Part shown: positions 18,588 to 55,874 of the stretch, one piece after another | Position numbering within the stretch: position 1 is the stretch's first letter | Layout of the letters: each line of letters opens with the position of its first letter | NCBI RefSeq assembly: GCF_018914005.1 | Contig: NZ_JAHMHI010000001.1 | Location: 558,001-622,000 of the forward strand | Length of the DNA: 64,000 nt | From: Mycoplasma zalophi | Lineage (GTDB): Bacteria; Bacillota_I; Bacilli_A; Mycoplasmatales; Metamycoplasmataceae | Reading direction: 5' to 3' | The notes under the pieces: model-generated | Database searches by the model: none | What the model was told of the DNA's origin: nothing | The model's input: the letters and a program-made list of their open reading frames with translations, nothing else | Translations under genes and position numbers: made by a program

Positions 18588-18620
18588 GAAAAAAGCTCTC
18601 TTTCATGAGAGTTTTTTTAT
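18588..18620. terminator. Terminator between convergent operons
   Basis: GCTCTC pairs with GAGAGT (one G-U) with A-run and T-run flanks, between the P60-like stop and the end of the protease-like gene at 18622. Confidence 0.75.
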
Positions 18621-18621
18621 A

Positions 18622-20670
18622 TTAATTTCCTTGCTTTATTTCATGTTCATATTGAAATTCAACTAATCTAAATAGAGATTCCATTTGTTCTATTTTTTCT
18701 TGTTGTTTTTCAAGAGAATCGTTTTCATGAATTGCATATTCTTGTAATTTATTTGTATATTCTCTTTTCTTGCGTTTGTCTTTTATGTGCGGTAAATATT
18801 TTTGAATATCATTATATACTTTATCTCAAGCTTTTTGTTTTATGCTTGCTAAGTATTGGTTATATTTTTTTTCTCCTAATACAGGATCTTTTAAATATGC
18901 TTCAATGATATCATATTCATAATATGCAAAATATGGAATTTCTAAATCTACTTCAATACCATCTTCAGTGTAAGGTAAATCATTTTCATTTGTTATTATT
19001 TCATCCGGAACACCAACTCAAGCATTATTTGAAGACATATCCAAACTGGTTCCATCAGGTAGTACAACAGGTAGAACAGAATACATTCCACCACCACTTG
19101 TATTTCCTATTATTGTTGCAAAATTTCCTAATTTAGCAATATGAGTAAGTAGGTTTGCAGCACTAAATGTGTTTTTACCCACTAAAATATATCAATTATA
19201 ATCTGTGTATCCATCTCTTGCATCATATGCAGCATCATTATTGATATCAACACGATATTTACTGAAGTTAAGTAATTTATTTAAAATATCATAGTAATAA
19301 ATTTTTTGATCTTTATTTGTCATAAAAGCAACAACTTTTTCCATTGCAGCAATTGAACCACCACCATTTAATGATAAGTCTAAAATAATTTTATTGATTG
19401 ATTGTGTTTTTGAGTGCTCTTGAATTCTTTTCATTGCTTCAAACATTAAAAAGTAACTATCATATTTATAAGGCTGGTCACCGTTTATTTCTTCATTTGT
19501 TCCAACAGTAAAAGAATTTAAATAAATGATTGCAATGTCGTTGTGGAAGGATACGATGTTAGCGTCACCATTATTTAAATCATTTTGCATGTTTTTTGCA
19601 CTTCTTATTCTTGATAGAATTCTATATGTTTCTATATAACTTTGTAATCTTGAACTATCAGCAGATGCATAAGGATTTGCACGATAGTTTTTAGGGTGAA
19701 AATATGAGCCTGATTGAATTGAAGTATGCAATTCATTTAAATATTTATAAATAAATTCTTCATATGCATTAGCGTTAACTGTAGCATCAGGTGACATTAA
19801 TTTTTCTTTTAAATTTACTTTTATAAAAAACTCGTCTAAAGAATTTACATTATGTTTTTTTAAAAATGCTTTTTCTAAACCATAAAAATTATCAAATAAA
19901 AATAATAAGAAATTATAGTTATTTAGTCTTTGTTGCTGTGTTTGTTGAGTATTATTGTAAGAATTATTCATAACTTTATTGTATTCAGATGCATCAATAT
20001 CTTTATTAATTATTGAAGTAATTCCTATTAATTTATCACCATTAAAATAAATGTTGTAATAACTTTGACTTAAAAATAATAAGTTAAATACTGATAAAGG
20101 AAGAAAAATATTTTGATTTTTTTCTAACACACTAAAGTTGTATTTTTTTAGATCTAGTTCAGCATACTCATCATTATTTAAACTTTTAACTGAATCTTCT
20201 AAGTATTTTATTTTATTTGAATAATTTTTAGTTGAAGAACTTTTTAAAAACACAAATACATCAGTTGATTCAAATAATATTTTGTGATTTTTATCATCAA
20301 ATATAATTTCCCTTCCAAAGACAGTAAATTTATGTCCTAATTCTGATTGCCCTGAATATCTAAAAACATTTTCTAAAAATAAGCCTTTTAATTTTGTTAT
20401 AAATTCGTTAATATTTACATAAATTTCTTGCGTATTTTTTTCTTTAAAAAGATTTAAATTGTTATTTTCTATATTGAATTCGTTAGAAATATTTTCAAAT
20501 GCATATGATTTTATTAAATCTAAATTATTTGGGCTTGAATTAGTTATTCTAAAAATTGTGGGTATAGAACAAGAAACAGCTGCTGAGATTGCTGTGACTG
20601 AAGAAATTGATAAAGAAGAAATGACTATTAAGTTTTTTATGAATTTTTTATTTGTATTATATTTTCTCAT
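18622..20670 (-). CDS. S41-family peptidase-like lipoprotein
   Basis: 682 residues. The N-terminal signal peptide ends in AAVSC (lipid cysteine 34). After about 340 residues of unrecognised sequence comes an S41 (C-terminal processing/tricorn type) core. It has IAIIYLNSFTVGTNEEI, then INKIILDLSLNGGGSIAAMEK (family motif IDLRxNxGG), then ILVGKNTFSAANLLTHIAKLG with the nucleophilic serine (Ser503) and IIGNTSGGG. Such enzymes cut exposed C-terminal segments of proteins. It is the last gene of the minus-strand operon; its start overlaps the end of the 869-residue LRR lipoprotein by 34 bases. Surface-anchored protease is the likely role; the general base is not identified. Confidence 0.75.
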
Positions 20671-23246
20671 TCATTTCCCTTAGCTTTTTCATAGTTTGTT
20701 TTTTCAAGTAAATAATCACTTCTTGTTTCACCATCAAGTTTTTCATCTTTTTGAACATTTTCAAATGATAAATCATATCCAAATGTACTAATTAATTTTA
20801 TGTAGTTTTGAATCATGTTTTCAGTCATTTTAAATGTATTTCTACTTGCATAGTTATTTTTATATGGGAATCCAGAAATTAAATTATTTTTTTCTTCTAT
20901 TGGCATATTATCATTAATTTCTAAGATTTCTTTTACAATTTTCTGATTTTCTTCAGATAAAGAATTATAGTCTAAAAAGTGATTTTTGTATATATCTTGT
21001 AAATATTGTATGTAGTATTCAGATTGTCGAACAATTAGACGATATTTTGCCATTTTATCTTCTATTTCTTTATTCTTATCTTCTAAATTATCATATTCAT
21101 TTTTTGAATTATTAAAATTATTTTCAGTTTCAATGAATTTTGCTTTTACATTTTGATCTTCAATATTTTCATCATTATTTAGTTTTTCTTGGGTTATAAC
21201 ATATCCAACAATATTTAATAATTCTTTTTGTTTAGCAACATTTTCATTTAGTGTTTTTATTGTTGCTTTTAAGTTATATGCGTATCTATTTATTATTCAT
21301 TCAACATCTTCTGCTAATTTTTCTTCGTTAGTATTTGAAACAAAATCTTTTAATTTTGTTTTTTGATCTTCTGTTAATTTAGTTAAATCTTTTGTAGCTG
21401 CACGTGCAATTTTTTGTAAGAAATCTAAATAAGTATAAAATTGTGTTTTTCTCTCTTCAATTTTTTTATTATTTGCTTCTTTTTGATTTTCTAATTCACT
21501 ATCATCACTAATTTCAATATCTGATCCTAAAACTTTCATTAATTTATTTTTATCTTCTTCGCTATGAACATAGATTTTTTGAAGTTTTGGGAAAATATTT
21601 TTTGAAATTAAAATTCCACTTGTAGCACTTTGATTAGTTGTTACTAAGTCAAAGTTTGTATCAGCTGCAAAAGTTAATTCTGTTAATTCTTGTAATGATG
21701 TAATAAAAGTTTTTATTTTTGAGCCTAATGTTAAAGTTGCTACTTTAGTATTTCTAAATCCTGTAAATACCTCTAATGTTTCAGGTAAAGATAATTCTGC
21801 TATTTTAGTATTATTAAATCCTTTTAATTCAACTAATTTGTCATTTAAATTTAATGTTGTTAAATTAGATGCATTATCAAAAGCAAAATTTATTTCTGTT
21901 ACATTAGCGGGTATAGTTACTTGTGTCACTTGAGTATTTTCAAAACCACTTAATGTTTCTAATGTGTTAGGAAAAGTAATGTTTTGTAAATTTGTATTGT
22001 CAAAAGCATGAGCACCTATCGATACTAATTTATCATTAAATTGCACATTTTCAAGGTTTTCAAAATTACTAAATGAATTTGCTTGAATATAAAGAACTTT
22101 TGAAGGTATTTGTACTTGGTGAGTTTCTTGATTGTATAAATTATTTGCAATTTCAGGGGTTATAGAAATTGCTGTTGCACTTTCTATAATTTCATTTACT
22201 TTACGTTTTAAGTTTCGCTCTTTTTCTTTATATTGATTACTTGTATCTTCTCTTGCTTCTTTGAAAGATTTTTTAATTTTTTCTTGAATTTCTAAGAAAG
22301 CAGGATCATTTCCAAATTGTTGTTCAAGATTACTTAAAATCTTAAATTCTTTTAACAAGTAAGTTTCAAACAATTCTTGATCAGTTAATGATTCTAATCT
22401 TTTAGCTTTGTGTTCTGTTTCTTTAAGTTCAGAAATCATATTTTTTATTTTTCTATAAAATTGGCTATCTATTTTGTTAATGTTTTCAGCTTCCTGAATT
22501 TTTTCAGTCATTAATTCTTTTGCATCATCTTTTTCAAAAGTTTCTTTTAATTCTTTAGCTTCATTAAGTGTAGAATTGAATTTATCTTCAAGAATTTGTT
22601 GTTTTTGAGCAACTGATAAATTGAAATAATCATCAGCTTCTTTAATTTTTAGGTTTAATTGATTAACGGCTGCTTTAATTGTTTCAGTTGTAGCTTCTGA
22701 ATCATGAAAACTTGCTTCAGCATCTGATATAGCCTGCGCAATTAAATTAAATGCAACATCATCAACGTCATTTGAGTAAGGGCCTTTTTTTCTTTGTGCT
22801 GCAAATATTGTTTGTTCTAAAATATTTAAGTTAATTTGCTTTTCTAATTTAGGTTTTATTGTTTGTCATTGAGCGCTTTCTTCACCTAATTTAGCTTTAA
22901 TTTTTTCAAATTTTTGTTGGTCATTATTAGTTTTTGATTCAATGTCAGCTTTTTTAATTGCATCATCTAATAATTGCATTATTTCTTTTTGCTTTGCGGT
23001 ATCATCACGAAAAGTTTTTGCTTGTTCAATAGCGCTTTCTATTATTTGTAAAGATAAAAAGTCAAGTACATTTGTATAAAGTCCTTTTAATTCTTCTAAT
23101 TGATTAATTTTTTCATTTAAAGCGTTATTTTCTTGATCATTATTTTCTGGATCTTGTTTTTCACAAGAAGCAGCAATTGCAGGGATAGCAGAAATTGGTA
23201 ATAATCCTAGTGATGTAATTGTTAATATTTTTTTAGATTTTTTCAT
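20637..23246 (-). CDS. Leucine-rich-repeat (BspA-like) lipoprotein 2
   Basis: 869 residues. MKKSKK and a hydrophobic stretch end in AIAASC (lipid cysteine 28). Long charged helices (about 35-380) are followed by a BspA/LRR_5-type leucine-rich-repeat region (about 385-590) with units such as FENLENVQFNDKLVSIGAHAF and LETLSGFENT. Then another helical, lysine/glutamate-rich part follows to the C-terminus. TGA-Trp codons occur at 22866, 21297 and 20667; I checked the two connecting stretches codon by codon and found no TAA/TAG. It begins two bases after the upstream LRR gene, with AAGGA inside that gene's end, so it is in the same operon. The ligand is unknown; LRRs usually bind proteins. Confidence 0.85.
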
Positions 23247-23248
23247 AT

Positions 23249-25549
23249 TTATTCCTTTGTTTTATCTTCGATATAAATTGTTGGATTATCTTGTTTCATC
23301 ATAGTTAATCATTTTTCATTATTTATTAAGTGTTTGTTATAAACAACAACTTTTTTAAGTAATGCTCAATGGTCTTTGCTAATTTCAGCATATCTTACAT
23401 TTTTAGGTAATACTAATGTTTCAATTTGTGTTTCAGTAAAACCAGCAAAATATTCAAGGCCTTCAGGTAAAACTAGTTCTTCTATTGGAGTTACATTAAA
23501 TCCCCCTATTTTAGTAACTGTTGATGGTATTTTAATTGATGAAATATTAGTAAAACCAAATCCATCTAATTTTATTAGTCCTTCAGGAAGATTAATTTCA
23601 GTTATTAATTTATTAAAATTAAATGCATCAGATGTAATTTCTTTTAGTGTTGATGGTAAATTTATAGAAGAAATTTGTGATTTTTCCCCAGAAAACCCAC
23701 CTAATATTTCTAAATGCTCTGGCAATTTAATTTCTTTTAAAGCAGAATTAGCAAATGAATTTGGTTCAATAACCACTAAAGTTTCAGGTAGTATAACATT
23801 TTCAAGCCGAGGAGTATTTGCAAACCCACCTAGTTTTGTCAATCCAGAATTTAATCATAAATATTTAACAGATGTAGCATCAAATGCATTTTCAGTTATT
23901 TCTTTTAAGTTATCTGGAGTTTTAACCTTTGTTATTTTTGTATTTGCAAACCCACCTAATATTTCAAGCGAATCTGGTAAATTTATCTCTTTAATATCAG
24001 TTTCATCAAATGAATGTCGATAAATAACTTTTAAGTTTTTAGGTAAATTAATTTCACTTATTTTTGTATTTGCAAACCCACCTAATTTTTCTAAATTCTC
24101 AGGTAAAGATACTTTTGAAATATTAGTTGCATCAAAAGTATTTGCAAAAATTTCAGTAACCGTAGATGGTATGTTTATGTTTCAAATATTTCAGTTTGCA
24201 AACCCACCTAATGATTTTAATTTAGAAGGTAAATTTATATTAACTGGTTGAATTTGAATATCAGTATTTAAATCAAAAGTATTTGGTGCGATATATGTTA
24301 TTGAATCTGGTAAAGTAACTTCTGTAAGATCTAATTTTGCAAACCCACCTATTTTTTTAATTCCATCTGGAAAAGAAATGGAAATAATTCTTGTTGCATC
24401 AAATGAGTTAGGTGCAATTTCTTGCAAATTAGCTGGTAAATTTAAACTAGATATTAAAGTTGTTTGAAACCCACCTAATTTTTCTAAAGTTGAAGGCAGT
24501 GAAATACTTCGTAAATTTTTAGAAAATGCAAAAGCATCTTTTGAAATTTCAATTATTCCTTCAGGAAAAGAAACAGATTCAAATTGTGAATTTTTAAACC
24601 CACCTATTTTTTTAAGACTTGTAGGAAGGTTTAAAATTTTAAATTTAGGTTCTTCAAAAGCATCATCTGAAATTTCTTGTAAATTATTATTAAAAGTGAT
24701 ACTTGATATATTTGTGTGTGAAAACCCACCCAATACTCTTAAATTTTTATTAAGTGATAATTCTTGAATTGGTGTTAAATCTAATGTATTTTTGTGAATT
24801 ATTTCCAAATTATCAGGAAGTTTTATATTTGATATTCCTGTATTCGCAAACCCACCTAATTCAATTAAACCGTTTGGTAAAATAAGTTCAGCTACTTTTG
24901 TGTTATCAAACGAGTTAGGTAAAATTTTTTTTAGGTTATTAGGTAAAATCAATTTATTTATTTTAGTATTTGCAAACCCACCCAATACTTTTAAATTTTC
25001 AGGTAAAGATAAATTATTTATAGAACTATTATTAAATGCCCTTTGTCCTATGTACAATAAAGAATTAGGTAAATGAATCGTTTCTAAATTAAAATAATTT
25101 TCAAAAGCCCCATCTGAAATTTTAGTTATTCCTTCAGGTATAGTAATTTCTTTTAAATCTTTTGAAAATGTTTTTATTACTTTGTTTTTTGTTAGGATAT
25201 TTGCATTGTTTTCTTCGGGGTCTTCAATATTTTGAATATCTTTTTCACTATAAAAAGCTAATTTATCTAAATTACTTTTAATTTTAGAAATTAAATTATT
25301 TTTTAAATTTTTATATTCATTTTCAGTGAGTGAATTAGATTTTAATTTAGTTTCTAGATTGATTATCATATTTAATGTTTCATCATCAGTTACTTGTTTT
25401 TTTCATTCATTTATTTCTTCATTTATTTGATCTTTATTTATATTTTGTATTTGATTGTCTTTTGCACAAGATACCAAAGTAAATGTAGTTATCAAAAATG
25501 GTGTTGATAACATAGATAGATAAAAGAATTTATTAGTTTTTTTGTTCAT
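23249..25549 (-). CDS. Leucine-rich-repeat (BspA-like) lipoprotein 1
   Basis: 766 residues. The signal peptide ends in LVSC (lipid cysteine 28). Residues about 120-730 are almost entirely BspA-type LRRs arranged as a double unit of about 42 residues: L-x-x-L-G-G-F-A-N-T-x-I-x-x-L-x-L-P-x-x-L-x-x-I-x-x-N-S-F-D. At DNA level the GGFANT part recurs as TTTGCAAACCCACCTAAT (reverse strand) roughly every 126-140 bases. TGA-Trp codons occur at 25403-25405, 24191-24193, 23366-23368 and near the C-terminus. AAGGA lies eight bases before ATG 25549. It is the first gene after a TPP riboswitch/terminator and heads the operon with LRR lipoprotein 2 and the protease-like lipoprotein. Confidence 0.87.
23490..24990 (-). 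repeat. Tandem ~126-140 bp repeats encoding LGGFANT leucine-rich units
   Basis: Copies of the sequence encoding L-G-G-F(-A-N-T) occur near 23498, 23693, 23823, 23947, 24075, 24199, 24340, 24468, 24597, 24722, 24848 and 24974. The unit is 42 residues in its commonest form. Copies have diverged at the DNA level outside the conserved core, so they are not freshly duplicated, but they offer substrate for unequal recombination. Confidence 0.8.
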
Positions 25550-25570
25550 AAATGTTCCTTTTAGCAAGAG

Positions 25571-25607
25571 CAATTAAAAAGAGAGGTGCCTAAGGCACTT
25601 CTCTTCT
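25571..25607 (-). terminator. Riboswitch-associated terminator before the LRR operon
   Basis: On the minus strand GAGAAGTGCC (25603-25594) pairs with GGCACCTCTC (25590-25581) across a 3-base loop, with one mismatch, and is followed by five T's (25580-25576). It lies between the TPP aptamer and the start codon, the classical position for a metabolite-controlled intrinsic terminator. Confidence 0.85.
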
Positions 25608-25683
25608 CAAAACCATAACGCATGAATTACCATGATCTGCTTCAAACGGTTTAATCTCAGCTTTTAAAAGCACCCTCGCATAA
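25608..25683 (-). promoter_or_regulatory. TPP (THI-box) riboswitch, operon of LRR lipoproteins
   Basis: The minus-strand sequence carries the conserved THI-box elements in order: GGGTGC (from about 25676), CTGAGA (25661-25656), TTTGAAGC, then AGATCATGGTAATTCATGCG (about 25639-25620). These match the TPP-binding consensus (GGGGUGC, CUGAGA, CCUGAUCUGG...AAUxCCAGCGUA). A terminator follows. When TPP is bound such elements normally switch off transcription, so the LRR/protease operon should be expressed when thiamine diphosphate is scarce. The family identity is strong; the regulatory direction is inferred from the terminator arrangement. Confidence 0.92.
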
Positions 25684-25687
25684 TAAA

Positions 25688-25693
25688 ATTATA
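25688..25693 (-). promoter_or_regulatory. -10 box upstream of the minus-strand TPP riboswitch
   Basis: TATAAT on the minus strand lies just before the aptamer, which would put the transcription start within a few bases of its 5' strand. Confidence 0.55.
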
Positions 25694-31084: not shown

Positions 31085-31090
31085 TATAAT
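31085..31090 (+). promoter_or_regulatory. -10 box of the thiamine-type ABC operon
   Basis: TATAAT directly before the TPP aptamer; transcription would start at about 31097 or slightly upstream, inside the P1 stem. Confidence 0.6.
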
Positions 31091-31091
31091 T

Positions 31092-31170
31092 TAATTAACA
31101 GAGGTGCTAAAATGGCTGAGAATATACTCTTAAAGCTGATCATGGTAATTCATGCGTAGCGAGTTAATTA
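31092..31170 (+). promoter_or_regulatory. TPP (THI-box) riboswitch, Cypl/p37-type transporter operon
   Basis: The closing stem P1 is perfect (TAATTAAC 31092-31099 with GTTAATTA 31163-31170). Inside are GAGGTGC, GGCTGAGA (about 31115-31122) and CTGATCATGGTAATTCATGC followed by GTAG, the conserved TPP-binding core. It lies upstream of a lipoprotein-ATPase-permease set, the expected target for thiamine uptake control. Confidence 0.95.
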
Positions 31171-31179
31171 TATAGTCTT

Positions 31180-31210
31180 TTCCTCTCTGTTACAAGGAGG
31201 AATTTTTTTG
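31180..31210 (+). terminator. Expression-platform hairpin that also covers the ribosome binding site
   Basis: TTCCTC (31180-31185) pairs with GAGGAA (31197-31202), followed by seven T's. The 3' arm contains the Shine-Dalgarno AAGGAGG (31194-31200) of the next gene, and the T-run runs into its TTG start codon. The hairpin can therefore act as terminator and as ribosome-site sequestrator. Confidence 0.7.
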
Positions 31211-32527
31211 AAAAAAATAAGCAAAAAATTAATTTGAAAAATATTTATAACTGGTTTTTTATTAGCAGGAACCAGTACTTTTGCAATATCCTGTGCTGAT
31301 CCCAACACTAATACTAGCACTAATACTAAAACTAATCCCCACACAATTAAAAATACAAAAACAGATGAAAATTGAGATACAGAGATAACCATTACATATA
31401 ACTGGGCAAATAAAGGTTTTCTTTCTCCAGAAAAAAATACTCAAAAATCACCTAATGATGTGTTTTTAGAAAAATTACAGTATAAATTTAATGAATTAAA
31501 AAATGCTGATAATGATTTAAAAAAATATCCTGATGTAATATTTAAAACTGCTGAAGTTTCAAATGATAATGCAAGGGACAATTTATTAATCGACCAAATA
31601 GATAATGATATTTCAATTATTCCATATAAAATACTTGGAGATAAGATTGATAAAAATAATTTAGACCAGTATCCAAATTATGTGGGTAATACTGAAACAT
31701 TAGCATTTAAATGAACGCTCGATGATAATGCTAAATATTTAGATGGAAGTGATAATGATCCACTTATTAAAACCGCAAAAGAAAATAATAAAATATATTT
31801 TTCAGAAAATGGAGAGTATCCTGATTGATGAAAAATTAAAAAACAATTAGAGTGAGATGGCTCAAAATATAAAGTATTTTATGATAACACAGATAAAACT
31901 ACACAATTTTATCGTGGAGCAATTTACATTTCAGGAACAGATGATGAATTAAAAGCAATTGAAAATTCTTGAAAATCAAAAAATTGAGAAGAATTTTCAA
32001 AATATGGGATTATTTTCCAAGGTACCTCAAGTTTAGGTGGATATAGATTACAAGCAAATTTAATTGCAAAAAACTTTAATTTAAGCTCAATTGAAGTAAA
32101 TAAATATTTCACAGATCAAGAAAACAAAAATAACAAAAAAGTGGAGCAAAATAGTCAAGTTTCAATTAGATTAGGTAAAAAAGACAGTCTAGGTCATGTA
32201 TTTCACATAGGTTTTGATGATGAAGGTGTTTTAAACTGAACGGAATCTATTGAAAATGAAGATCATTTTACACCTACTGATCCAAATGCAAAAATACGTG
32301 TTTTAACTCTGACAGATCCTGCTCCTTATAATGGAGTTTTTAGAAGAAAAGGGCTTTCAGAAAAACAAAGTTCATTAGTTATGAAAGCTTTACAAAGCCT
32401 TTCAATTGAAGAAAATCAATTAGGAATTTACACCGGATTTAATAAATTTGTTGCCGGTGATGTCGATACGTTTAAAAAATATATTGATATTTATAATACA
32501 AATACAATAGATACAAAGAATAAATAA
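31208..32527 (+). CDS. Thiamine/TPP-binding lipoprotein, Cypl (p37) type
   Basis: 439 residues starting at TTG 31208, placed by AAGGAGG seven bases upstream; no ATG gives a signal peptide. The peptide ends in FAISC (lipid cysteine 29), followed by a Thr/Asn spacer. The mature part looks like a phosphonate-type periplasmic-binding-fold protein: ITITYNWANKGF at the start, FQGTSSLGGYRLQ in the middle, and RVLTLTDPAPYNGVFRRKGLS near the end. TPP riboswitch, order and ATPase/permease partners match the M. hyorhinis p37-p29-p69 system, whose p37 binds thiamine diphosphate. The role as TPP/thiamine receptor is inferred from that set. TGA-Trp codons are frequent. Confidence 0.85.
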
Positions 32528-32528
32528 T

Positions 32529-33272
32529 ATGATGAATTTAAAGTTTAAAAAAGTTGATATCAAATATAAAAAAAATGAAAATGCTATTTTATCTAATATA
32601 AATTTTGAAATAAAAGCAGGAGAAATGGTTGCTTTTATTGGTCAAAGTGGAGTGGGTAAGAGCACTGTTTTTAAATCAATTGTACGAAATTTAAAACCAT
32701 CAAAAGGGCAAATTCTTTTAAATAATGAAGATATTTATTTATTAAATAAAAGAAAATGAAAACAAACAATTCAAAAAATTGGTTTTTTAACACAACAACC
32801 GAATTTAATATTTACTGACAATGTTTATAACAATATTATTAGATCTATTTCACAATATAAAAATAAATTTTATAGTTTATTTTCTATCATAACTAGACAA
32901 CAAAAAATAAATATTTTTGAACAATTAGCAAATTTAAATATTTTAGATAAATCTTTTTATCGTGTATCTGAATTAAGTGGTGGACAACAACAAAGAGTAG
33001 AAATTGCTAAACTTTTAATAAAAAAAGCAGAACTTATTTTAGCTGATGAGCCAACCAGTAGTTTGGATTTTCAAACTTCATTAGAGGTATTAGAAATTTT
33101 AAAAGATTTAAATAAAAGATATGGATTAACAATAATTGTTATAATTCACGATTTAAATTTAGTAAAAAAATATTTTGATAGAGTTATAGCATTTAAAAAC
33201 AACACAATAACACTAGATAAAGAAACAAAAGATATTGAACAATGACAGCTACTTCAAACAGTACAAAAATAA
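32529..33272 (+). CDS. ABC transporter ATPase, p29 type
   Basis: 247 residues. Walker A is GQSGVGKST (about 39-47), then the Q-loop IGFLTQQPNLI, signature SELSGGQQQRVEIAK, Walker B LILADEPTSSLD and the switch histidine IVIIHD. The closest family by eye is the phosphonate (PhnC) type importer ATPase. It starts one base after the binding protein's stop and overlaps the permease by 31 bases. TGA-Trp codons occur at 32757 and 33243. It should energise uptake of the riboswitch-controlled substrate, probably thiamine or its phosphate. Confidence 0.92.
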
Positions 33273-34995: not shown

Positions 34996-36426
34996 CTAAT
35001 TATCTTCATTTTCCATGAAGTTAATTCTTAAAATATTAAAATATAAAAACAAGTGATTTTTCTGATCGTTTTTTCAAGGTTCAGGAGTATTAACTATAAA
35101 TGATCAATAATCAGAAGATTCAGTAATTACTTCTTTTTTATTTGTTTTATCTAAGTTTTTATATCATTCTTTTGTTTCTAATTCTTTTTGCAAGATTTCT
35201 TTAATTTTATCTTTTTTGTGATCTAAATCACCATCTCACGCACCAAATAATTCTTTTTGTTTTTGAGCAGATAAATAAATTATTAAATCTACGTGTGCAG
35301 GTATAGTGATGTTATTATCTTCACTTTTTTCTTCATACTTTTTTCAATAAAATTTAATATCTGGATTATCTTGATATTTTTGTTCTATTGAGTAATTTTT
35401 TATATTTCAATCTCTATTTACATAATATGTATAAGGATAATCATTTATAAATTCATATTTACTAGTTCCGGGTATTATTGTTATTATGGCTTTATAGTGG
35501 TTATCATGTTTATATAATTCATCTCTTTTTATTGGTTGTGTACCTTTTTTTCTATAATCATATACAAAGTTTATTGTTTCAGTTGTTAAATCTTTCTTTA
35601 AAAAAGTTATATCCATAAGGTTACCATCATAAATTTGGAAATAAAATAGTTTATTATTATCAATATGGAATCCAGGCCCTCCAGGTATTGCTCCAGAATA
35701 CATAAGGGCATAAAATGTAAGAGTTTCTCACGCTAAATCTTCATCGTCAGCCAAATTACCGTATTTTCTTTCTTCTGATAATCTATTTTCGTAAAAAAGA
35801 TCATCAAATTCAAATAAAAATTCTTTGGCAGTAAGGTTATTTGAGTTAGTATCTCTTTTTAAAGTTGCTCTTCACGAAAAGTTATTAAGGTCAATAGGTT
35901 TTAGTGGGTCTGTTTCATTGTTGGTTTCATAATTTGTTATTAAAACCTCGTCAAAATTTTCACTTTTAAACATTTTGTTGTCTACGTCTTCTTTTGATGA
36001 ATATTTTTCTTGATATTCAGTTATTTTTTTATGCAATTGTTCTATTTCAATATCTTTATCTTTTAATATCGAATTTAATTCTAAAATTTGATCTCTTATT
36101 TCATTGATTTTTGCGTTTAAAGAGGTAATTTTGTTAGAAATTTCTTGATTTTTATTTTGATCTGTGTTTTTGTTTTTTAATTGACTTTGTAATTTAGAAA
36201 TTTCAGCAGATTTATCAAGTAATGTATTTTCTAAGGACTTTAATTGAGATTTATAAAAATTTTCATTAATTTTTTGTTGCTTATTAAAACTATTGTTTTT
36301 GTTTTTTGTAACAACATAAGTTGGAATAGTAGCGATTGAAACAACAGATAAAAAAGCTAAAAATATTATTAAAATTCATAATTTTGATTTTTTCTTTTGT
36401 TTATCTTTATCATTATTATTTGTCAT
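34996..36426 (-). CDS. Coiled-coil membrane protein, paralog A
   Basis: 476 residues of unknown function. A lysine-rich cytoplasmic start (1-14) is followed by one membrane segment (about 15-38) and a long coiled coil (about 55-150). Then comes a block shared with three neighbours, VDNKMFKSENFDEVLITNYET...DPLKP. Family C-terminal motif IPAHVDLIIYLSAQKQKELF is followed by a tail ending in RINFMENEDN. I see no cysteine. The topology is N-in with the bulk outside, as for a surface protein. It follows paralog B by 11 bases and shares its transcript. Confidence 0.82.
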
Positions 36427-36437
36427 TATTTCTCCTA

Positions 36438-37898
36438 TTAATTTTTATTAGTATCTTCATTTCCTAAAAAATTAATTCTTAATACATTAATAAATAAAGG
36501 AATTTTATTATTATAATCATAACTTTGAATATCTGAATATTCTAAATTGTAGTTATTCATATCATTGATAAATCAAGAAGTTACTTTTAATTTATGTTCT
36601 TCTAATGATTTGATATATCATTCTTTTTGCTCTATTTCCTCTTGTAAAATTTGGTTTATTTTATCTCTTTTATCACTTAGTTTTGCATCTCAAGATCCAA
36701 ATAATTCTTTTTGTTTTTTAGCGGATAAATAAATTATTAAATCAATGTGAGCTGGTATATTATTTTCATCATCTCTATCTTTATATTCTTTTCAGTAGAA
36801 TTTAATGTCTGGATTGTCTTGATATTTTTTATCAACCTCGTAATTTTTTAAATTAACATCTTTGTTTTTATAATATGTAAATTCCATTTCTTCTCCTGAA
36901 TTAGTTGGAATTAACACACGCGAGCGTTCAATTCTATTAGGTGCTCATTTAAGTTTTATTATAATTCTATAGTGGTTACCAGTTTTATGAATATCGTCTA
37001 AATTTACCAATTTATTTCATGCATCATCTTCATTTTTTGCAGTCATTGTTTGTGTATTTAAATTTTTATCAAGGTAAATTACGTCGATTAAATCTTCATC
37101 ATCTAAACCAAAGTAAAATATTCTTTTATTTGTTATTTCTAGTCTAGAATCTTCTATAAATGTTACCCCTGCATTTATAAGTGCTTGAAAAATTAGTTTA
37201 TTTCATTTAATATTTCCATATTTCACTTCATTGCTAACTCCTAGTTTTCTATTTTTCATTACTTCTTCTACATATTCTTTGTTGAACTCAAATAAAAACT
37301 CTTTTTCTGTAAGCTTATTTGAAGTAATGCCCTTTTTTAATGTAACTTTTGAAGAATAATTTTTTACATCTACAGGGTCTAGCGGGTCAATGCTTTGTGA
37401 TTTTTCATATGTCGTTAGTAAAACTATATCAAAATTCTCATTTTTAAAATCTTCATTATCTATGTCTTCTTTTTTGATATATTTTTCTTCATAATCTTTT
37501 ATGTTTTTAGTAAGCTCTGAAATTTCTTGATTTTTATTTTCTATTATAGAATTTAGTTCTAAAATTCGCTGTTTTAAAGTTTCATATTCTGATTCCAAAG
37601 TTTTAAGTTCATTGGTAAGTTTTTGATTTTCAGAATCATCCTCACTATTATTTTTTAATTTATTTTTTAATTCTAAAATTTTGGCTGCTTTATCTAATAA
37701 ATCATCTTCTAAAGATTTTAATTGTGAATCGTAGTAATTTTTATTAATCTTTTGTTTTATTACTGAATTTTTATTGCTATTTTTTGTTAAAAAGTAAGTA
37801 GAAATAGCCGAAATTGAAGTAATTGAAAATAATAATAAAAACAATCAAAGAATTCACAAAAGCTGTTTTTTGTTTTTCTTTTTATTTTCTTTTTCCAT
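36438..37898 (-). CDS. Coiled-coil membrane protein, paralog B
   Basis: 486 residues with the same layout as its neighbours: short Lys-rich start, membrane segment (about 13-37, with two TGA-Trp codons), coiled coil, then DNEDFKNENFDIVLLTTYEKSQSIDPLDP, and the C-terminal IPAHIDLIIYLSAKKQKELF followed by VLRINFLGNED. Function is unknown. It is more similar to C and D in the DFKNxNFDIVL block than paralog A is. A start at ATG 37898 with GGAGAAA upstream is preferred over internal methionines because it includes the basic anchor. Confidence 0.82.
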
Positions 37899-37940
37899 TT
37901 TTCTCCTATTAAAATTTTATATTAATTTAAAAGTTTTTAG

Positions 37941-38250
37941 AAATGAAAATCAAGTTTGCGTAAAAAACACAAGATTAAACATCAATATTTTCATGCTAAT
38001 AATGGTGTAGAATATGCAGATTTTCATGTGAAAAATTACTTAGTAAAAAATAAAATAATTCAATCAATGACTACTAAAGACAATTCACTAGAAAAATGTG
38101 ATCCAAATATTTATTATATTTAAACAGAATTACAAAAAATTCATATTATAATAAACTATTTCAAATTCTTGAAAAAAGAATGATTTAAAACACAAAAAAT
38201 CATTTAACTGAATTGCTTTATAATTATTTATTTTAAAAATAAGCATCAAT
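37941..38250 (+). pseudogene. Remnant of an IS3-family transposase
   Basis: A frame from 37941 to TAA 38121-38123 encodes KHQYFHANNGVEYADFHVKN, then YLVKNKIIQSMTTKDNSLE. This matches the integrase-core segment of IS3-family transposases (FHSDxGxQY...GIxQSMSxKGxxxDN). After that stop, NYFKFLKKEWFKTQK (about 38154-38195) and an IYFKNKH-like piece (to about 38250) resemble the next transposase blocks, but stops separate them. No start, upstream catalytic region or inverted terminal repeats were seen. It is a dead fragment lying between paralogs B and C. Confidence 0.72.
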
Positions 38251-38409
38251 AATATGAAAAAAATATGAAGACATTTGAAATATACTATGCTATATCTTTA
38301 CACATAAATAATATATAATCTAATAAATTAAAGTAAAAAAACTCATATCAATAAAAATCAATATGAGTTTTGCGTCAAATTTTGTTCATCTAATTTAGGT
38401 GATTTTTTA
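38251..38409. other. A/T-rich spacer with a hairpin
   Basis: No gene. AAAACTCATAT pairs with ATATGAGTTTT (about 38337-38371) and is flanked by A's and T's. It is the likely terminator of paralog C on the minus strand. Confidence 0.6.
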
Positions 38410-39855
38410 TTAATTATCAGAAAGGTCTTGGCTATTTAAAAAATTTAATCTTAATATATTTAGATATAGTGGAGTTTTATTAGATTCACCGTATGAAAAA
38501 TTATTATATTCTAATGTAAAATGTTCATTTTCTACATTTCATGAAGTTATTTCTTTTTCATATGTTTTATCTAAATCTAAATATCACTGTTTTGTTTTTA
38601 GTTCTTCATTAAGAATATTTTTTAATATAGCTGCTTTTTCGTTAATATCACTTTCTAAATTTTGAAATAATTCTTTTTGCTTTTTAGCAGATAAATAAAT
38701 TATTAAATCAACGTGAGCGGGTATATTATTTTCTTCATCTTTTGTTTTGTATTCTTTTCAATAGAATTTAATATCTTCATTATTTTGTGATTTTTCATCT
38801 ATTGAGTAGTTTGCTATATTTCAATCATTATTTATATAATATTTTATTTTCTTATTTAATTCTTCATCGTTTTTATAATTATATCTTGCATCTCTATTAA
38901 TTCCTGATTTTATTTTTATTATTACTCTATAATGTTTTCCTGATTTATAAATTTCATCAATATTCAAGATATGATTTTTTTGGTAATTGTAATTAAATTC
39001 ATATGATATTTTTTTAGATTTTAATTCTTTGTTTAAAAAATTAATTTCTATTAAATCCTTAGGTTCAATAGCGAAATAAAATATTTTATTATTATCAATA
39101 TTTCAACCTGGTCCTACAGTAGCTCCCGCATACATAATGGCATCTAAAACAAGTTCCTCTCATTTTACCAATACTTCGTTATTCATATTTTCTCATTGTG
39201 TATGTCTTTTTTCTTCGTCAAATAATTTTTGATAAAAATCATAATCAAATTCAAATAAAAATTCTTTCTCTGTTAAATTATTATGATTTGTATTTCTTTT
39301 TAAAGTTATCTTTGTTGAATAATCATCTTTTTCAACTGGTTTTAAAGGGTCAGTACTATATGATTTATCATATGTTGTATTTAATACTATATCAAAGTTA
39401 TCATTTTTAAAATCTTCATGATCTACGTCTTCACTCGGAAGATATCTGTCTTCAAATTCTTTTAATTTTTTAAGAAGTTCTGAAATTTCAATATCCTTGC
39501 TTTTTAATATTGAATTCATAGATGATATTCTTTCTCTTAAAGTATTTGATTCAGATTCTAAGGTTTTGACTCTTTCTTTTAGAACATCATTATTATTGTC
39601 ATTGAAATTTTCCATTTGGTTATTTAATTTATAAATTTCAGATTCTTTTTCAATTAGCTGATTTTCTAAAGATTGTAATTTTAATAAATAGTAATTTTTA
39701 TCTTTTTCTTTTTGTTTATTTAAATTAATACCTTGATTTCTAGTTATATAATATACAGAAATTGATGAAACAGCAATACCGAATATAATAGACAAAAAGA
39801 TAATTATTATTGAAATAAGTGTTTTTTTCTTTTGTTTTTGTTTTTCTTTTTCCAT
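38410..39855 (-). CDS. Coiled-coil membrane protein, paralog C
   Basis: 481 residues. The start is ATG 39855 with GGGGG seven bases upstream; an in-frame GTG at 39870 has no ribosome site. The membrane segment is about 12-37, coiled coil about 45-140, then VDHEDFKNDNFDIVLNTTYDKSYSTDPLKP and the C-terminal IPAHVDLIIYLSAKKQKELF. Codons for its last third (38531-38848) are almost identical to those of paralog D (40064-40381), while the middle of the two proteins differs strongly. Function is unknown; it is probably surface exposed. It lies 72 bases after D and could be co-transcribed with it. Confidence 0.82.
38531..38848 (-). repeat. Near-identical 318-bp block shared with paralog D (40064-40381)
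   Basis: By eye the block differs from its counterpart at only a few positions (for example GAGCGGGTATATT against GGGCAGGCATATT), while the flanking coding sequence is much more diverged. The offset of 1533 bases keeps the frame. Recent duplication or gene conversion explains it. Confidence 0.8.
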
Positions 39856-39927
39856 TTGACCCCCAATCACTGAAAAATATAATATTATTTCATTATTTTT
39901 TAATTAATTAAATTATTAAGATAATAA

Positions 39928-41394
39928 CTAGTCAAATATATCGTAATTATCATGATAATCTTTTTTTTCTAAAAAATTAAGTCTTAACATATTAAAGTAT
40001 AAAGGCATTTTATCTGAATTATTAGTAAATCTGTTTTGGTATTCTAGTAAAAAATTATTATTGTCTACATTTCATGAAGTTATTTCTTTTTCATATGTTT
40101 TATCTAAATCTAAATATCACTGTTTTGTTTTTAGTTCTTCATTAAGAATATTTTTTAATATAGCTGCTTTTTCGTTAATATCACTTTCTAAATTTTGAAA
40201 TAATTCTTTTTGCTTTTTAGCGGATAAATAAATTATTAAATCAACGTGGGCAGGCATATTATCTTCTTCATCTCTTGTTTTGTATTCTTTTCAATAGAAT
40301 TTAATATCTTCATTATTTTGCGATTTTTCATCTATTGAGTAGTTTGCTATATTTCAATCATTATTTATATAATATTTTAAATACTTATTTATATCTTTAT
40401 CATGGTAATATTTATGTGATGGTTGTCTGTTTGTTCCTGTTTTTATTTTTATTACAACTCTATAATGTTTGCCAGATTTATAGATTTTATCAATATTTAA
40501 TACGTTTTTTGAATCATAAAAATAGTGGAGATTAAAAGACACTGTTTGTAAATCTAAATTTTTATTTAGGTAATGAATATCTATTAAATCCCCCTCATCT
40601 ATTAAAAAATAAAATAACTTAGTGTTAACACTATATGCTCCAGCTTGATTTGCCCCTAAATATGAAAGAAAATATACAAATAAATCTTCCCAATATAAAG
40701 ATATATCGTCTTGGTTATTTTGATTAGCCATATGTTTTGCATATTCCAGCATTTTTTTATAGAAATTATCATCGAATTCAAATAAAATTTCTTTCTCTGT
40801 AAAATTATTTTTATTATAATTTCTTTTTAAACTTATTTTTGTTGAATAATCATCTTTTGTAAATGGCTTTAAAGGGTCGGTATCATACGATTTCTCATAA
40901 GTTGTACTTAATACTATATCAAAATTATCATTTTTAAAATCTTCATGATCTACGTCTTCACTCGGAAGATACTTATCCTTAAATTCTTTTAATTTTTCAA
41001 GAAGTTCTGAAATTTCCATATCTTTGCTTTTTAATATTGAGTTTATAGATAATATTCTTTCTCTTAAAATATTCGATTCAGATTCTAAGGTTTTAATTTC
41101 TTTTTCCAAATCACTTTTTGCATTATTATTTTCATTATTAATTTTTTTCAAATTGTCATTTAACTTAGAAAGTTGAGATTGTTTTTTGATAAGTTGATTT
41201 TCTAAAGACGTTAATTGTGCTAAATAATAATTTTTGTTATTTTCATTTCGTTTGCTTAAATTTGCATTTTTATTTTTGATTGAATAATAAGTTGGAATTG
41301 ATGCAATGGTGGCACCAATTAAAATAGATAGAAAAATAACAATTATTCAAATAAATGTTTTTTTGTGTTTCTTTTCTTGATTTACTTCTTTCAT
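39928..41394 (-). CDS. Coiled-coil membrane protein, paralog D
   Basis: 488 residues with the shared layout. Lys-rich start, membrane segment (about 16-37, starting with a TGA-Trp), coiled coil, VDHEDFKNDNFDIVLSTTYEKSYDTDPLKP, a variable middle, and the conserved IPAHVDLIIYLSAKKQKELF block. The C-terminal third is nearly identical in DNA to paralog C. A minus-strand TATAAT lies near 41462-41467 and an 18-A tract (18 T's in transcript sense) lies about 40 bases further upstream. GGAGGAAAA precedes the start. Function is unknown. Confidence 0.82.
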
Positions 41395-41503
41395 TTTTCC
41401 TCCATTCATTGTCAAAAATATAAATTATTAATGTGATATTTGAATTAAACGCGAAACGTCATTATAACACATTGTTAAGATTGAAAAAATAAAAAAGACA
41501 AAC

Positions 41504-46796: not shown

Positions 46797-49700
46797 ATGA
46801 ACTTAAATCAAAAAAAATTAAAGAAAATAAGTGGAATACTGGTTGTATCTACTGCTACTTTAGCGGTTACTACAACAACATTTATTGTTGAAGAAGCTAG
46901 ATTAAAAAATCTAATTCAGACTCAACAAAAATTATGAAACAATTTAAATGAATTTAAAAATACTGAATTAAAAGATGATGAATTTTTATCAAAATTAGTA
47001 CAAGATATTTTAGATGATAACCCTGTGTTAAATATTTTTTACGACACTTTTACAAAAGTTAGGATAAAAATTGATAACCTTAAATTTTCCTTACAAAAAT
47101 TTGCGACTATAATTTCAAACAACAAAGAAAACAGCAGTAAAAAATATAATTCATTAAAAAGCCAAATAAAAAACTATATTGATGATGAATTGAGATTTAC
47201 AGAGTATGAAAATTTAAAAAACAAGCTTCAAGAAGCAGTTGAAAACTCAGATAATAATTTAAATTCAAATTCTAGTCAAAAAGAAATAGACAATCAAACA
47301 AAAATTCTTCAAGATATTTTTGACCAAATAAAAAAAGACAAAGCAATTAAAGATAATGATATTAAACAAATGGCTTTTTCTGATTATGAAACAGCTTTAA
47401 GAAAATTAAATGAATTTATTAATGACCCTTTATCATTACACGATTTTTATAGCGAACTATATTCAAATGAAAAAACTAATCGTGATGAAATTGCAAAAAA
47501 TATTAGTTTTGAAAATTCTAATGTTGGTGAAATTTTAGAAGCAAAACAAAAATTAATTCAAGAATTAGAAGATGCAACTAAAAAAGCTCATGAGGTTTCT
47601 AAACAAACACTTCAAAAAGTGTATGATGAAGCTAAAGCATACTCAAATGAAACATTAATTACTGCAGATGATGCTAAAACAAAAGAAGATTTATTAAACT
47701 TTTCAAAAGAAAAATATGACTTAGGAATTGAAAGTGATGATTTTGAAGTTGTTTATGACAGTATAAGCAAAATTACTAGTTACATAGAATCTGCAAAAGT
47801 TAAAAAATATTTAAACGATGTATTAAGAAATCATTCAATTAATACTTTAAAAGAAGCACAAGAATTTGCAAATACTTTTTTAAATGATTTTACTGATAAT
47901 AAATATCCAGATATTAAACAATATGTATCTGATATTTTAGCAACCGAAAGTCAAGGCACTGAATCAAAAACATTTGACAAAATATACGAATCAGCAGAAA
48001 AAATAATCGAAGCTTTAAAAACCAAAAAAGGTGAAGCAATTACTGCTTATAATACACAAAAAGCGAAATTAAATGAAATCAAAGATGAATTAACAGAATC
48101 TAAATATGAGTCAATTAAACAAGAAATAATTAATTTAATAACTGAAAAAGATGCAATAATAAATAATCCAAACTCAACAACAAGAGATATTTTAGATGCA
48201 ACTGAAGTATTAAAAAACTTTGAAAATCAAATCGAAAACAAAAAGCAAGCTAAAGACAATATAAATTCAACATTTACCGATATTGAAAATTACATAAAAA
48301 CTCATACACACCCAGAAGATGCTAAATCAATAAGCGAGTTACAAGAAGCTTTAAATAACATTAAAGAAAAAACTAAAAACTCTTCAGATACTGCTGAAAT
48401 TCAACAATGAAATAATGAATTATCAACTATTTTTGAAAAAACCAAACAAATGGTTAATGAAACAGCAACAAATCGTGAACAAGCAAGCACAGAATATGAA
48501 ACAATTGCAAATAAAGCAAATAAATTAATAGCAGAATTAGAAGAAAATCCACAAAAATATCCTAATTTAGCTGAAGAATTAAAAATTAAAAAATCAGAAA
48601 CTGATGGAGTCGTTGCTAAAAAAGATACTGAATCAACAAGTACACAAATAACACAAGCAAAAAATGATTTAGAATCAAAATTAAATGAAATAGAAGCCAA
48701 AAAAGACAGAATTGATTTAGAGGAATCAAAAGCTAAATATGAAAATAAATATTCTGAAGCATCTAATTATGAAACTTCATTAGATGAAGAAAAATATTCA
48801 TCAATTAAAACAGAATTAAAAAACAAAATCGCAGAAATTAATGAGTTATATGAAACAAGTATTAATAGCGAAGAAAAAAATGATAAACAAAAAAATGTTG
48901 ACGTTAAAGAAGCAATTAAAAATATTCAAATTGCTCTTGATAAAGCTAAACACGACAAAGAAACCTTAGATAAAAACCGTAAATTCCAAAGTTATTTAGC
49001 ACTAAAACATTTAATTGAAAATTATATTGATTCTGATTTAAAAGATTCTAAATTTAAGTTTATAAAAGATAAGTTAAATGAAGCAATTGACACAAATGAA
49101 CAATTATTAGAAAATGATCCAGATGCTGCTGAACCAACATTAAAAGATTCAGTAACTGATGAACAAATTCAAGCATCAATTGATAATTTAACAACTATAT
49201 TTGAAGCTAATACAGAACTAAAAACATCAAAAGATAACTTTGATCTTAAAGTAGAAGATGCTGAAACATTATTATCAAAAATTAAAGCACCTGTTTTAAA
49301 TAAAGATGATGAAGAACTTTATAATACTTTAAAAAATAAAGTAACAGAATTACAAAAATTTTTTAAAGATGATAATAATAAAACAAAAGACAATTTTGAT
49401 CAAAAAGCAAAAGAATTATCAGGTGCAATAACTCAAGCAAATGACAAATACATTGAAAATAAAGCCAAAAGAAAACAGGCAAGAACTAATTTACAAGCAA
49501 AAATTGATTCAATTAAACAATATGTCCAAGACAACTTACAAGAAAATAAAGATGGAACTTTTGTTACAAAACCCGAACATATAGCTACTGAAAGAAAAAT
49601 TTTAGAAGAATTAGAAAAAGCAAAAACAATTCATGATAGTGCTTCTTCAACTGAGAAAAATTTAATTGATGCTTTAAATTCTTTAAATGATCAAGAAAAA

Positions 49701-55700: not shown

Positions 55701-55874
55701 GTAATTAAATTATATTTCGAAGCAATAGATTATTACTTTGAAGATGATTTAGAACATCGTGTATATAAACAATTAATCATGTGAGATGCAAGAGGTGATA
55801 AAGCAAGTAATACAAAAGTAAATTTAACGCTAGATTATTATGAAGATTCAGACAATGCAGGTTTAACAAAATAA
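46797..55874 (+). CDS. Giant repetitive coiled-coil surface protein 1 (Lmp-like)
   Basis: 3025 residues in one table-4 frame; TGA-Trp codons occur in the N-terminal 540 residues and after 53307. A single hydrophobic anchor or signal segment (about 11-30, no lipid cysteine) begins the protein. Then follow thousands of Lys/Glu/Asn/Ala-rich helical residues built from diverged units. Typical unit phrases are AxxKLNEIKDELTxSKYESIKQEI and DxLSQLxxAxDNA, similar in style to FIVAR-type helical repeats. The last ~600 residues, from the first late TGA, are non-repetitive and rich in aromatic residues (YFIVDHMNGENKHLHFKDVYDN). No cysteine was noticed. It resembles M. hominis Lmp proteins in size and composition; the name is not certain. 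It probably forms a long surface fibre. Confidence 0.85.
50108..50316 (+). repeat. ~209-bp block nearly identical in both giant genes (pair at 59434-59642)
   Basis: Both copies encode KALSTS-PKPTIEILKESLPK followed by LQKAYDDAVLAKSKSDFDKVY and so on, with only a handful of base differences. The flanking sequence is far more diverged. The spacing preserves reading frame. Other shared blocks are 47925-48000 with 57235-57312 and 52290-52440 with 62965-63115. Confidence 0.85.

What the first reader, a model, noticed from the sequence alone, without database searches (positions are those of the whole stretch)
18622..25693. TPP riboswitch controlling surface LRR lipoproteins and a protease-like lipoprotein
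A complete THI-box aptamer plus intrinsic terminator lies directly upstream of an operon of two BspA-like LRR lipoproteins and an S41-type lipoprotein (seen in sequence). TPP riboswitches are established regulators of thiamine synthesis and transport genes, not of LRR surface proteins. No thiamine enzyme or transporter is in this operon. Inference: under TPP starvation the cell displays LRR proteins that bind host proteins, with a surface protease acting on them, perhaps to release TPP from host carriers or enzymes. This would be an undescribed scavenging system.
Basis: partly seen in the sequence, partly recalled or inferred. Interest (0 to 1): 0.85.

Follow-up and report, generated by a model that had tools for sequence, protein, structure and literature searches.

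The report
TPP riboswitch controls mycoplasma surface-protein operon
In at least 13 mycoplasma species, an RNA sensor for the active form of vitamin B1 (TPP) sits in front of an operon for two sticky surface proteins and a protease-like surface protein; because these bacteria have no recognisable enzyme for making TPP from thiamine, the operon is probably part of how they get it from a host, although that function is untested.

Summary
A TPP riboswitch (RF00059, 39.9 bits, E 2.8e-5 in 7 kb; below the Rfam gathering score of 54.3) lies directly upstream of a three-gene operon of two BspA-like LRR lipoproteins and an S41-peptidase-fold lipoprotein in a mycoplasma (TGA=Trp). It is not an accident of one genome. 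All 13 of 135 family genomes with the orthologous LRR1 gene have the order LRR1-LRR2-S41, and all 13 have a TPP riboswitch upstream. In one genome the trio is appended to the riboswitch-controlled TPP transporter operon (CypI-ABC-permease-LRR1-LRR2-S41). A covariance model trained only on CypI leaders recovers every LRR leader tested (50-84 bits). The aptamer is conserved (61/61 and 57/61 bases, against about half in flanking DNA) and shows compensatory pairs. Its 5' strand pairs with the terminator loop in 9 of 12 leaders, or next to the ribosome site in the window's clade, which predicts repression by TPP. No genome of the family has a recognisable thiamine pyrophosphokinase, so TPP itself is probably imported. 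The control step is well supported in sequence; scavenging of protein-bound TPP is plausible but untested. I found no earlier description. New regulatory target of a known riboswitch class.

The parts
25688..25693 (-). -10 promoter element TATAAT; transcript predicted to start at about 25682-25680, at the 5' end of the aptamer
   Evidence: Invariant TATAAT in 12 of 12 LRR leaders; sequence
25596..25687 (-). TPP riboswitch aptamer (RF00059), without a classical P1
   Evidence: 39.9 bits, E 2.8e-5; 51.3 bits with the clade model R1 trained on CypI leaders only; core 61/61 and 57/61 identical in relatives
25671..25679 (-). 5' switching strand GCGAGGGUG, shared between P2 and the alternative helix
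   Evidence: Complementary to 25573-25564
25576..25604 (-). Hairpin with U-tract (intrinsic-terminator-like); predicted to form in both states in this species
25564..25573 (-). UUGCUCUUGC: pairs with the 5' strand when the aptamer is unfolded; its UCUU can pair with the Shine-Dalgarno when the aptamer is folded
   Evidence: SD bases unpaired 0.93-0.99 in the free fold, 0.29-0.41 in the aptamer-constrained fold
25556..25562 (-). Shine-Dalgarno AAAAGGA of LRR1
23249..25549 (-). LRR1: 766-aa BspA-type LRR lipoprotein (lipobox LVSC)
   Evidence: PF13306, 383 bits, 8 stretches; 13 orthologues
20637..23246 (-). LRR2: 869-aa lipoprotein, helical N and C regions around a central LRR (about residues 360-560)
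   Evidence: PF13306; AlphaFold2 pLDDT 86.7; PcpA-like LRR
18622..20670 (-). S41-peptidase-fold lipoprotein, 682 aa; His315 and Ser503 invariant in 12 orthologues
   Evidence: PF03572; AlphaFold2 pLDDT 82.5, Foldseek E about 1e-10 to S41 peptidases
18589..18618 (+). Hairpin that closes the operon and the convergent lipoprotein gene
31090..31179 (+). Second, canonical TPP riboswitch
   Evidence: 62.7 bits, E 6.4e-10
31208..32527 (+). CypI/p37 TPP-binding lipoprotein
   Evidence: PF06646 E 3.6e-57; NF045838 361.6 bits, cut-off 225
32529..33272 (+). ABC transporter ATPase of the TPP transporter
   Evidence: PF00005
33242..34969 (+). ABC transporter permease of the TPP transporter
   Evidence: PF00528

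Best explanation
This is a TPP-repressed surface operon that belongs to the TPP-acquisition regulon of these mycoplasmas. Step 1 (well supported in sequence, not tested at the bench): when TPP is plentiful it folds the aptamer, P2 takes up the GGG of the 5' strand, and expression is shut off, by a terminator in the larger group of relatives and by hiding the ribosome site in the window's clade. Step 2 (inferred): when TPP is scarce the 5' strand GACAAGGG (or GCGAGGG) pairs downstream, opens expression and switches on LRR1, LRR2 and the S41 lipoprotein together with the separately regulated CypI TPP transporter. Step 3 (inferred): the LRR lipoproteins bind host or other proteins at the cell surface and the S41 enzyme cleaves them, which releases TPP for CypI to import; these cells have no recognisable TPP kinase and so depend on ready-made TPP. 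Confidence in step 1 as a real TPP-responsive control is about 0.9; in a role in TPP acquisition about 0.55; in proteolytic release of protein-bound TPP about 0.35.
For: Orthologous LRR1 in 13 of 135 family genomes, with LRR1-LRR2-S41 order and a TPP riboswitch upstream on the same strand in 13 of 13. Only two strong riboswitch sites per genome, CypI and LRR, and one in the genome where both operons are fused. Fused operon CypI-ABC-permease-LRR1-LRR2-S41, with LRR1 overlapping the permease end (L073). A model built only from CypI aptamers scores LRR leaders 75-84 bits in one genus and 50-51 bits in the window's clade. Purifying selection on the aptamer. Covariation in P4, P5 and the 5'-strand helix: 9 cells changed on both sides, 0 of 500 shuffles; cells paired 92.6% against 35-50% when slid. 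Folding switches from anti-terminator to terminator when the aptamer is imposed in 9 of 9 leaders of the second genus (clear in 8, weak in G117) and in G037, and for the ribosome site in the window. The 5'-strand helix of 8 bp or more occurs in 11 of 11 LRR leaders (shuffled 0.16) and 58% of CypI leaders (shuffled 0.11). No TPP kinase in 135 of 135 genomes of the family, although the same model finds it in other Mollicutes. S41 fold with invariant His and Ser.
Against: The window copy scores below the Rfam cut-off, has no P1 and a weak P4. In G000 and G047 the terminator hairpin is predicted in both states, so their control rests on a weaker ribosome-site model. No measurement of TPP binding, expression, protein ligands or proteolysis. 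122 of 135 family genomes live without this operon. LRR and S41 paralogues elsewhere in these genomes have no riboswitch, so the protein families have no general tie to TPP.
Confidence: 0.6

Rival explanations
1. The riboswitch is used as a niche sensor: low TPP reports a host site, and the LRR and S41 lipoproteins are adhesion, immune-evasion or general protein-digesting factors with no part in TPP supply.
For: LRR1 resembles adhesins such as HupY/LrrG and PcpA. Other lipoprotein operons are TPP-controlled in single species (L076, L082). LRR and S41 paralogues are widespread without TPP control.
Against: One genome has the genes in the same operon as the TPP transporter (L073); nearly every other riboswitch read in the family controls thiamine or TPP supply genes; the control has been kept in several separate lineages.
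Confidence: 0.28
2. In the window's own clade the riboswitch is degenerate, or has changed ligand, and no longer responds to TPP, although it does in the relatives.
For: 39.9 Rfam bits, no P1, weak P4, GCGG in G037; terminator predicted in both states in G000 and G047.
Against: 61/61 and 57/61 core identity with fast-changing flanks; known TPP-contact motifs CUGAGA, GAUC and GCG intact; ribosome-site switch still predicted. Several CypI leaders of the second genus also have no P1.
Confidence: 0.09
3. Chance: a riboswitch that belongs to another gene, or a random match, happens to lie upstream of an unrelated operon.
For: Score below the Rfam gathering threshold in every LRR leader.
Against: 13 of 13 conservation, E about 1e-10 to 1e-19 per genome with the clade model, covariation, promoter directly before the aptamer.
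Confidence: 0.01

Closest known systems
TPP riboswitch (THI element, RF00059), CypI/p37 operon of mycoplasmas
   Same: Same aptamer core; same clade-wide design in which the 5' strand pairs with the expression platform; the window has one 5.4 kb away in front of CypI. A TPP riboswitch next to p37 genes was noted in M. hominis (PMC4498124).
   Different: Here the controlled genes are LRR and S41 surface lipoproteins with no thiamine enzyme or transporter; the aptamer scores below the Rfam cut-off; in most relatives the platform is a terminator and not a ribosome-site hairpin.
HupY/LrrG of Streptococcus (NF047961; PMC6593403)
   Same: Surface LRR protein under a nutrient repressor (MtsR), an adhesin that also binds haem and supports growth on host haem; LRR1 matches the family model at 181 bits.
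   Different: LPXTG-anchored, haem and iron, protein repressor; 181 bits is far under the family cut-off of 1250, so LRR1 is not a HupY.
PcpA of Streptococcus pneumoniae (PDB 4cp6)
   Same: BspA-type LRR surface protein, best structural match for LRR2; from my own knowledge repressed by manganese.
   Different: Choline-binding anchor, no protease partner known to me, metal and not vitamin control.
S41 peptidases of Bacteroides type and the retinoid-binding IRBP (PDB 4l8k, 8vcb, 4lur)
   Same: Same fold (Foldseek E about 1e-10); conserved His and Ser.
   Different: Large extra N- and C-terminal regions, lipoprotein, in a TPP-controlled LRR operon; activity untested.
MIB-MIP immunoglobulin capture and cleavage system of mycoplasmas
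   Same: Works alike in idea: a surface binder plus a surface protease (from my own knowledge; its disruption in M. hominis is PMC10581049, only title and abstract seen).
   Different: No direct comparison with MIB or MIP was run; searches with the LRR and S41 proteins returned no MIB or MIP match; not known to me to be under a TPP riboswitch.

Membership tests
TPP riboswitch RF00059 | Score at or above the Rfam gathering threshold (54.3 bits) | tested here: not met
   39.9 bits in the window, 24-40 in the other LRR leaders; many CypI leaders of the family also fall short
TPP riboswitch RF00059 | Significant full-length match to the covariance model | tested here: met
   E 2.8e-5 in 7 kb, 8e-7 per genome, model 1-105; E about 1e-10 with the clade model trained on CypI leaders only
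TPP riboswitch RF00059 | Conserved ligand-contact motifs CUGAGA and GAUC...GCG | tested here: met
   Present in the window and in 12 of 12 LRR leaders
TPP riboswitch RF00059 | Helix P1 closing the junction | tested here: not met
   No P1 in LRR leaders; also absent from several CypI leaders of the second genus
TPP riboswitch RF00059 | Helices P4 and P5 with covariation | tested here: met
   Three pairs changed on both sides in P4/P5 in the second genus; P4 is weak in the window itself
TPP riboswitch RF00059 | Binds TPP and changes expression | not testable with these tools
   Needs in-line probing and expression work
S41 peptidase (PF03572) | Family profile and fold | tested here: met
   E 1.2e-13; Foldseek to S41 structures
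S41 peptidase (PF03572) | Catalytic Ser and His of the S41B/tricorn type | tested here: inconclusive
   Ser503 and His315 invariant in 12 orthologues; their assignment as catalytic rests on motif position; active-site geometry not measured
BspA-type LRR lipoprotein (PF13306) | LRR_5 repeats plus signal peptide and lipobox | tested here: met
HupY/LrrG adhesin (NF047961) | Score above the equivalog cut-off 1250 | tested here: not met
   181 bits

The most novel reading that the evidence does not exclude
A dedicated vitamin-scavenging machine on the mycoplasma surface: LRR receptors capture TPP-carrying proteins, an S41 lipoprotein cuts them, and CypI imports the released TPP, all switched on by TPP riboswitches when TPP runs low.
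Probability: 0.35. Interest if true: 0.85.

Novelty: new variant of a known kind. Interest (0 to 1): 0.68.

Why it matters
TPP riboswitches are known for thiamine synthesis and transport genes. Their conserved use in front of surface LRR and protease-like lipoproteins points to an uncharacterised step of vitamin B1 nutrition in TPP-dependent parasites, and gives proteins of unknown function a testable physiological context. It also shows that sub-threshold riboswitches can be found by training on a clade's own canonical copies.

Tried and rejected
Chance or isolated match: rejected by 13 of 13 conservation. A separate promoter between aptamer and LRR1: none of the promoter-like sites listed lies there; the scan is weak evidence. 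Direct anti-terminator in the window through GAGGGUGC with GCACCUCUC: about 4 kcal/mol worse than the free fold, not favoured. An LRR operon outside the family: none at E 1e-40 in a sample of 395 class genomes. The TPP-controlled 1483-aa lipoprotein of G034 as a second conserved case: a singleton. A tree of S41 against the permease to test transfer between genera: long branches, no firm conclusion. A first structure count was mis-sized and was redone. Literature searches on riboswitch plus LRR, Mollicutes, thiamine or lipoprotein found no prior report, in an open-licence library only.
Full report
What the sequence is. The window is a mycoplasma (TGA read as Trp; open frames with code 4). The closest named relative is Mycoplasma zalophi, with 91% identical LRR1. 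The own assembly has 836,022 bases and belongs to a family of 135 held genomes.

The observation. A default Rfam scan reports only one TPP riboswitch, at 31090-31179 on the plus strand, 62.7 bits. A -10 box TATAAT sits immediately upstream and a hairpin with a U-tract lies between aptamer and gene. The genes are LRR1 (766 aa), LRR2 (869 aa) and an S41-type protein (682 aa), all with lipoprotein signals; LRR1 and LRR2 are 2 nt apart and LRR2 overlaps S41 by 34 nt, so they form one operon. It ends at a hairpin against a convergent lipoprotein gene. The plus-strand riboswitch controls the p37/CypI TPP-binding lipoprotein with its ATPase and permease. The window therefore carries two TPP switches 5.4 kb apart.

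Conservation. I searched the 135 family genomes independently for RF00059, for LRR1 and for S41. Thirteen genomes in two genera have an LRR1 orthologue at E below 1e-140 (44-91% identity). In all thirteen LRR1 is followed by LRR2 and S41, and in all thirteen a TPP riboswitch lies upstream on the same strand. In seven relatives and the window it is directly upstream of LRR1; in four (G057, G058, G066, G067) one further lipoprotein with a spiralin domain stands between; in G041 a single riboswitch is followed by CypI, ABC ATPase, permease, LRR1, LRR2 and S41, with LRR1 overlapping the end of the permease gene. I fetched and read the genes behind 103 riboswitch hits in relatives: most precede CypI, ATPase and permease genes; a few precede ThiT-type transporters (L115), a block that looks like thiamine salvage genes (L083, read from the translations), a pyruvate dehydrogenase operon (L078), and lipoprotein operons in single species (L076, L082). 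Some 28 hits were not fetched. LRR and S41 paralogues elsewhere in the genomes carry no riboswitch. In a sample of 395 genomes of the class no LRR1 relative at E 1e-40 was found outside the window's genus (the sample held few of the positive family genomes).

Is it really a TPP aptamer. A covariance model built from 41 CypI aptamers of the family, with no LRR leader in it, gives LRR leaders of the second genus 75-84 bits, as much as CypI leaders, and the three leaders of the window's clade 50-51 bits. In whole genomes the true sites stand out by many orders of magnitude, and there are exactly two strong ones per genome, or one in G041. Between the window and its two nearest relatives the aptamer core is identical at 61/61 and 57/61 positions, while the upstream spacer is identical at 35/66 and 29/66 and LRR1 at 91% and 69%. 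In nine leaders of the second genus four pairs change on both sides (P4 two, P5 one, the switching helix one), against 1.6 in shuffles; 9 cells against 2.8, 0 of 500. Four of these nine sequences are close relatives, so the independent events are few. Classical P1 is absent; several CypI leaders of that genus also have none.

How it switches. In the second genus the 5' strand GACAAGGG, which includes the G's of P2, is complementary to CCCUUGUC in the loop of the terminator; G117 has GAAAAGGG with CCCUUUUC. In free folds this helix dominates and the terminator does not form (terminator probability 0.00-0.30); with P2 and P5 imposed the terminator forms (0.78-0.98). G117 is the weakest case, because its free minimum-energy fold already has the terminator. 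G037 switches too. In the window and G047 the hairpin forms either way; there the strand GCGAGGGUG pairs with UUGCUCUUGC just before the Shine-Dalgarno, and the Shine-Dalgarno is 0.93-0.99 unpaired in the free fold and 0.29-0.41 when the aptamer is imposed (in G047 a longer stretch that includes coding sequence blurs this). CypI leaders of the second genus show the same ribosome-site logic in most cases tested, while the CypI leaders of the window's clade do not switch in this simple model. Across the family a helix of 8 bp or more between the 5' strand and the downstream platform occurs in 11 of 11 LRR leaders and 58% of 74 CypI leaders, against 16% and 11% in shuffles. All point to repression by TPP. 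These are equilibrium folds without ligand energy, so the direction is a prediction.

The proteins. The S41 model has mean pLDDT 82.5 and matches S41 peptidases and IRBP. His315 and Ser503 are invariant in 12 orthologues; one species, G057, has its S41 frame interrupted. LRR2 is an LRR between long helical regions, best match PcpA. LRR1 is nearly all LRR and resembles HupY/LrrG without reaching that family's cut-off. HupY is a surface LRR adhesin under a metal repressor that binds haem and supports growth on host haem (PMC6593403): a precedent for the kind of role proposed, not a homology-based assignment.

Why TPP. No genome of the family has a match to the thiamine pyrophosphokinase catalytic domain (0 of 135), while the same model finds it in 190 of 296 genomes of the class, 23 of them in a sister family of the same order. 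The window's genome has one transketolase-type pyrimidine-binding protein, 332 aa, of the size of a pyruvate dehydrogenase E1 beta subunit (the assignment is my inference). A divergent kinase cannot be excluded. The metabolic model of the minimal cell JCVI-syn3A likewise assumes direct uptake of thiamine diphosphate after loss of this kinase (PMC6609329). A cell that must import ready-made TPP, much of which is held by proteins in animals (general knowledge), could profit from capture and cleavage of those proteins. That last step is inference.

Verdict. Real, conserved and, as far as I could search, undescribed. Known riboswitch class, new kind of target operon.

Noticed in passing
L078:1989-2076 (G005): A TPP riboswitch (68 bits with model R1) lies 10 nt before a pyruvate dehydrogenase operon that starts with E1 alpha, a TPP-using enzyme; direction of control unknown.
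   Followed up: partly
L076:1428-10261 (G034): A TPP riboswitch precedes a different operon of large exported proteins (1483, 611 and 728 aa; the first two with a lipobox Cys); the 1483-aa protein was found in no other genome of the family.
   Followed up: partly
L082:1769-3396 (G120): A TPP riboswitch precedes a lipoprotein with Lipoprotein_17 domains.
   Followed up: partly
L074 and L075 (G082, G071): Two TPP riboswitches face each other 3.8 kb apart. In L075 the CypI-ATPase genes lie behind one and the permease gene behind the other; in L074 only the CypI-ATPase side was recognised.
   Followed up: no
family of 135 genomes: No thiamine pyrophosphokinase (PF04263) in any genome, although the sister family of the same order has it.
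   Followed up: yes
window 34996-41415: Four tandem paralogues of 476-495 aa with an N-terminal membrane segment and coiled coil, weakly like a collagen-binding adhesin model.
   Followed up: no
window 46797-55874: A 3025-aa repetitive exported protein with no NCBIfam match.
   Followed up: no
L066 (G057): The S41 gene is split by a stop or frameshift in this species although its neighbours are intact.
   Followed up: no
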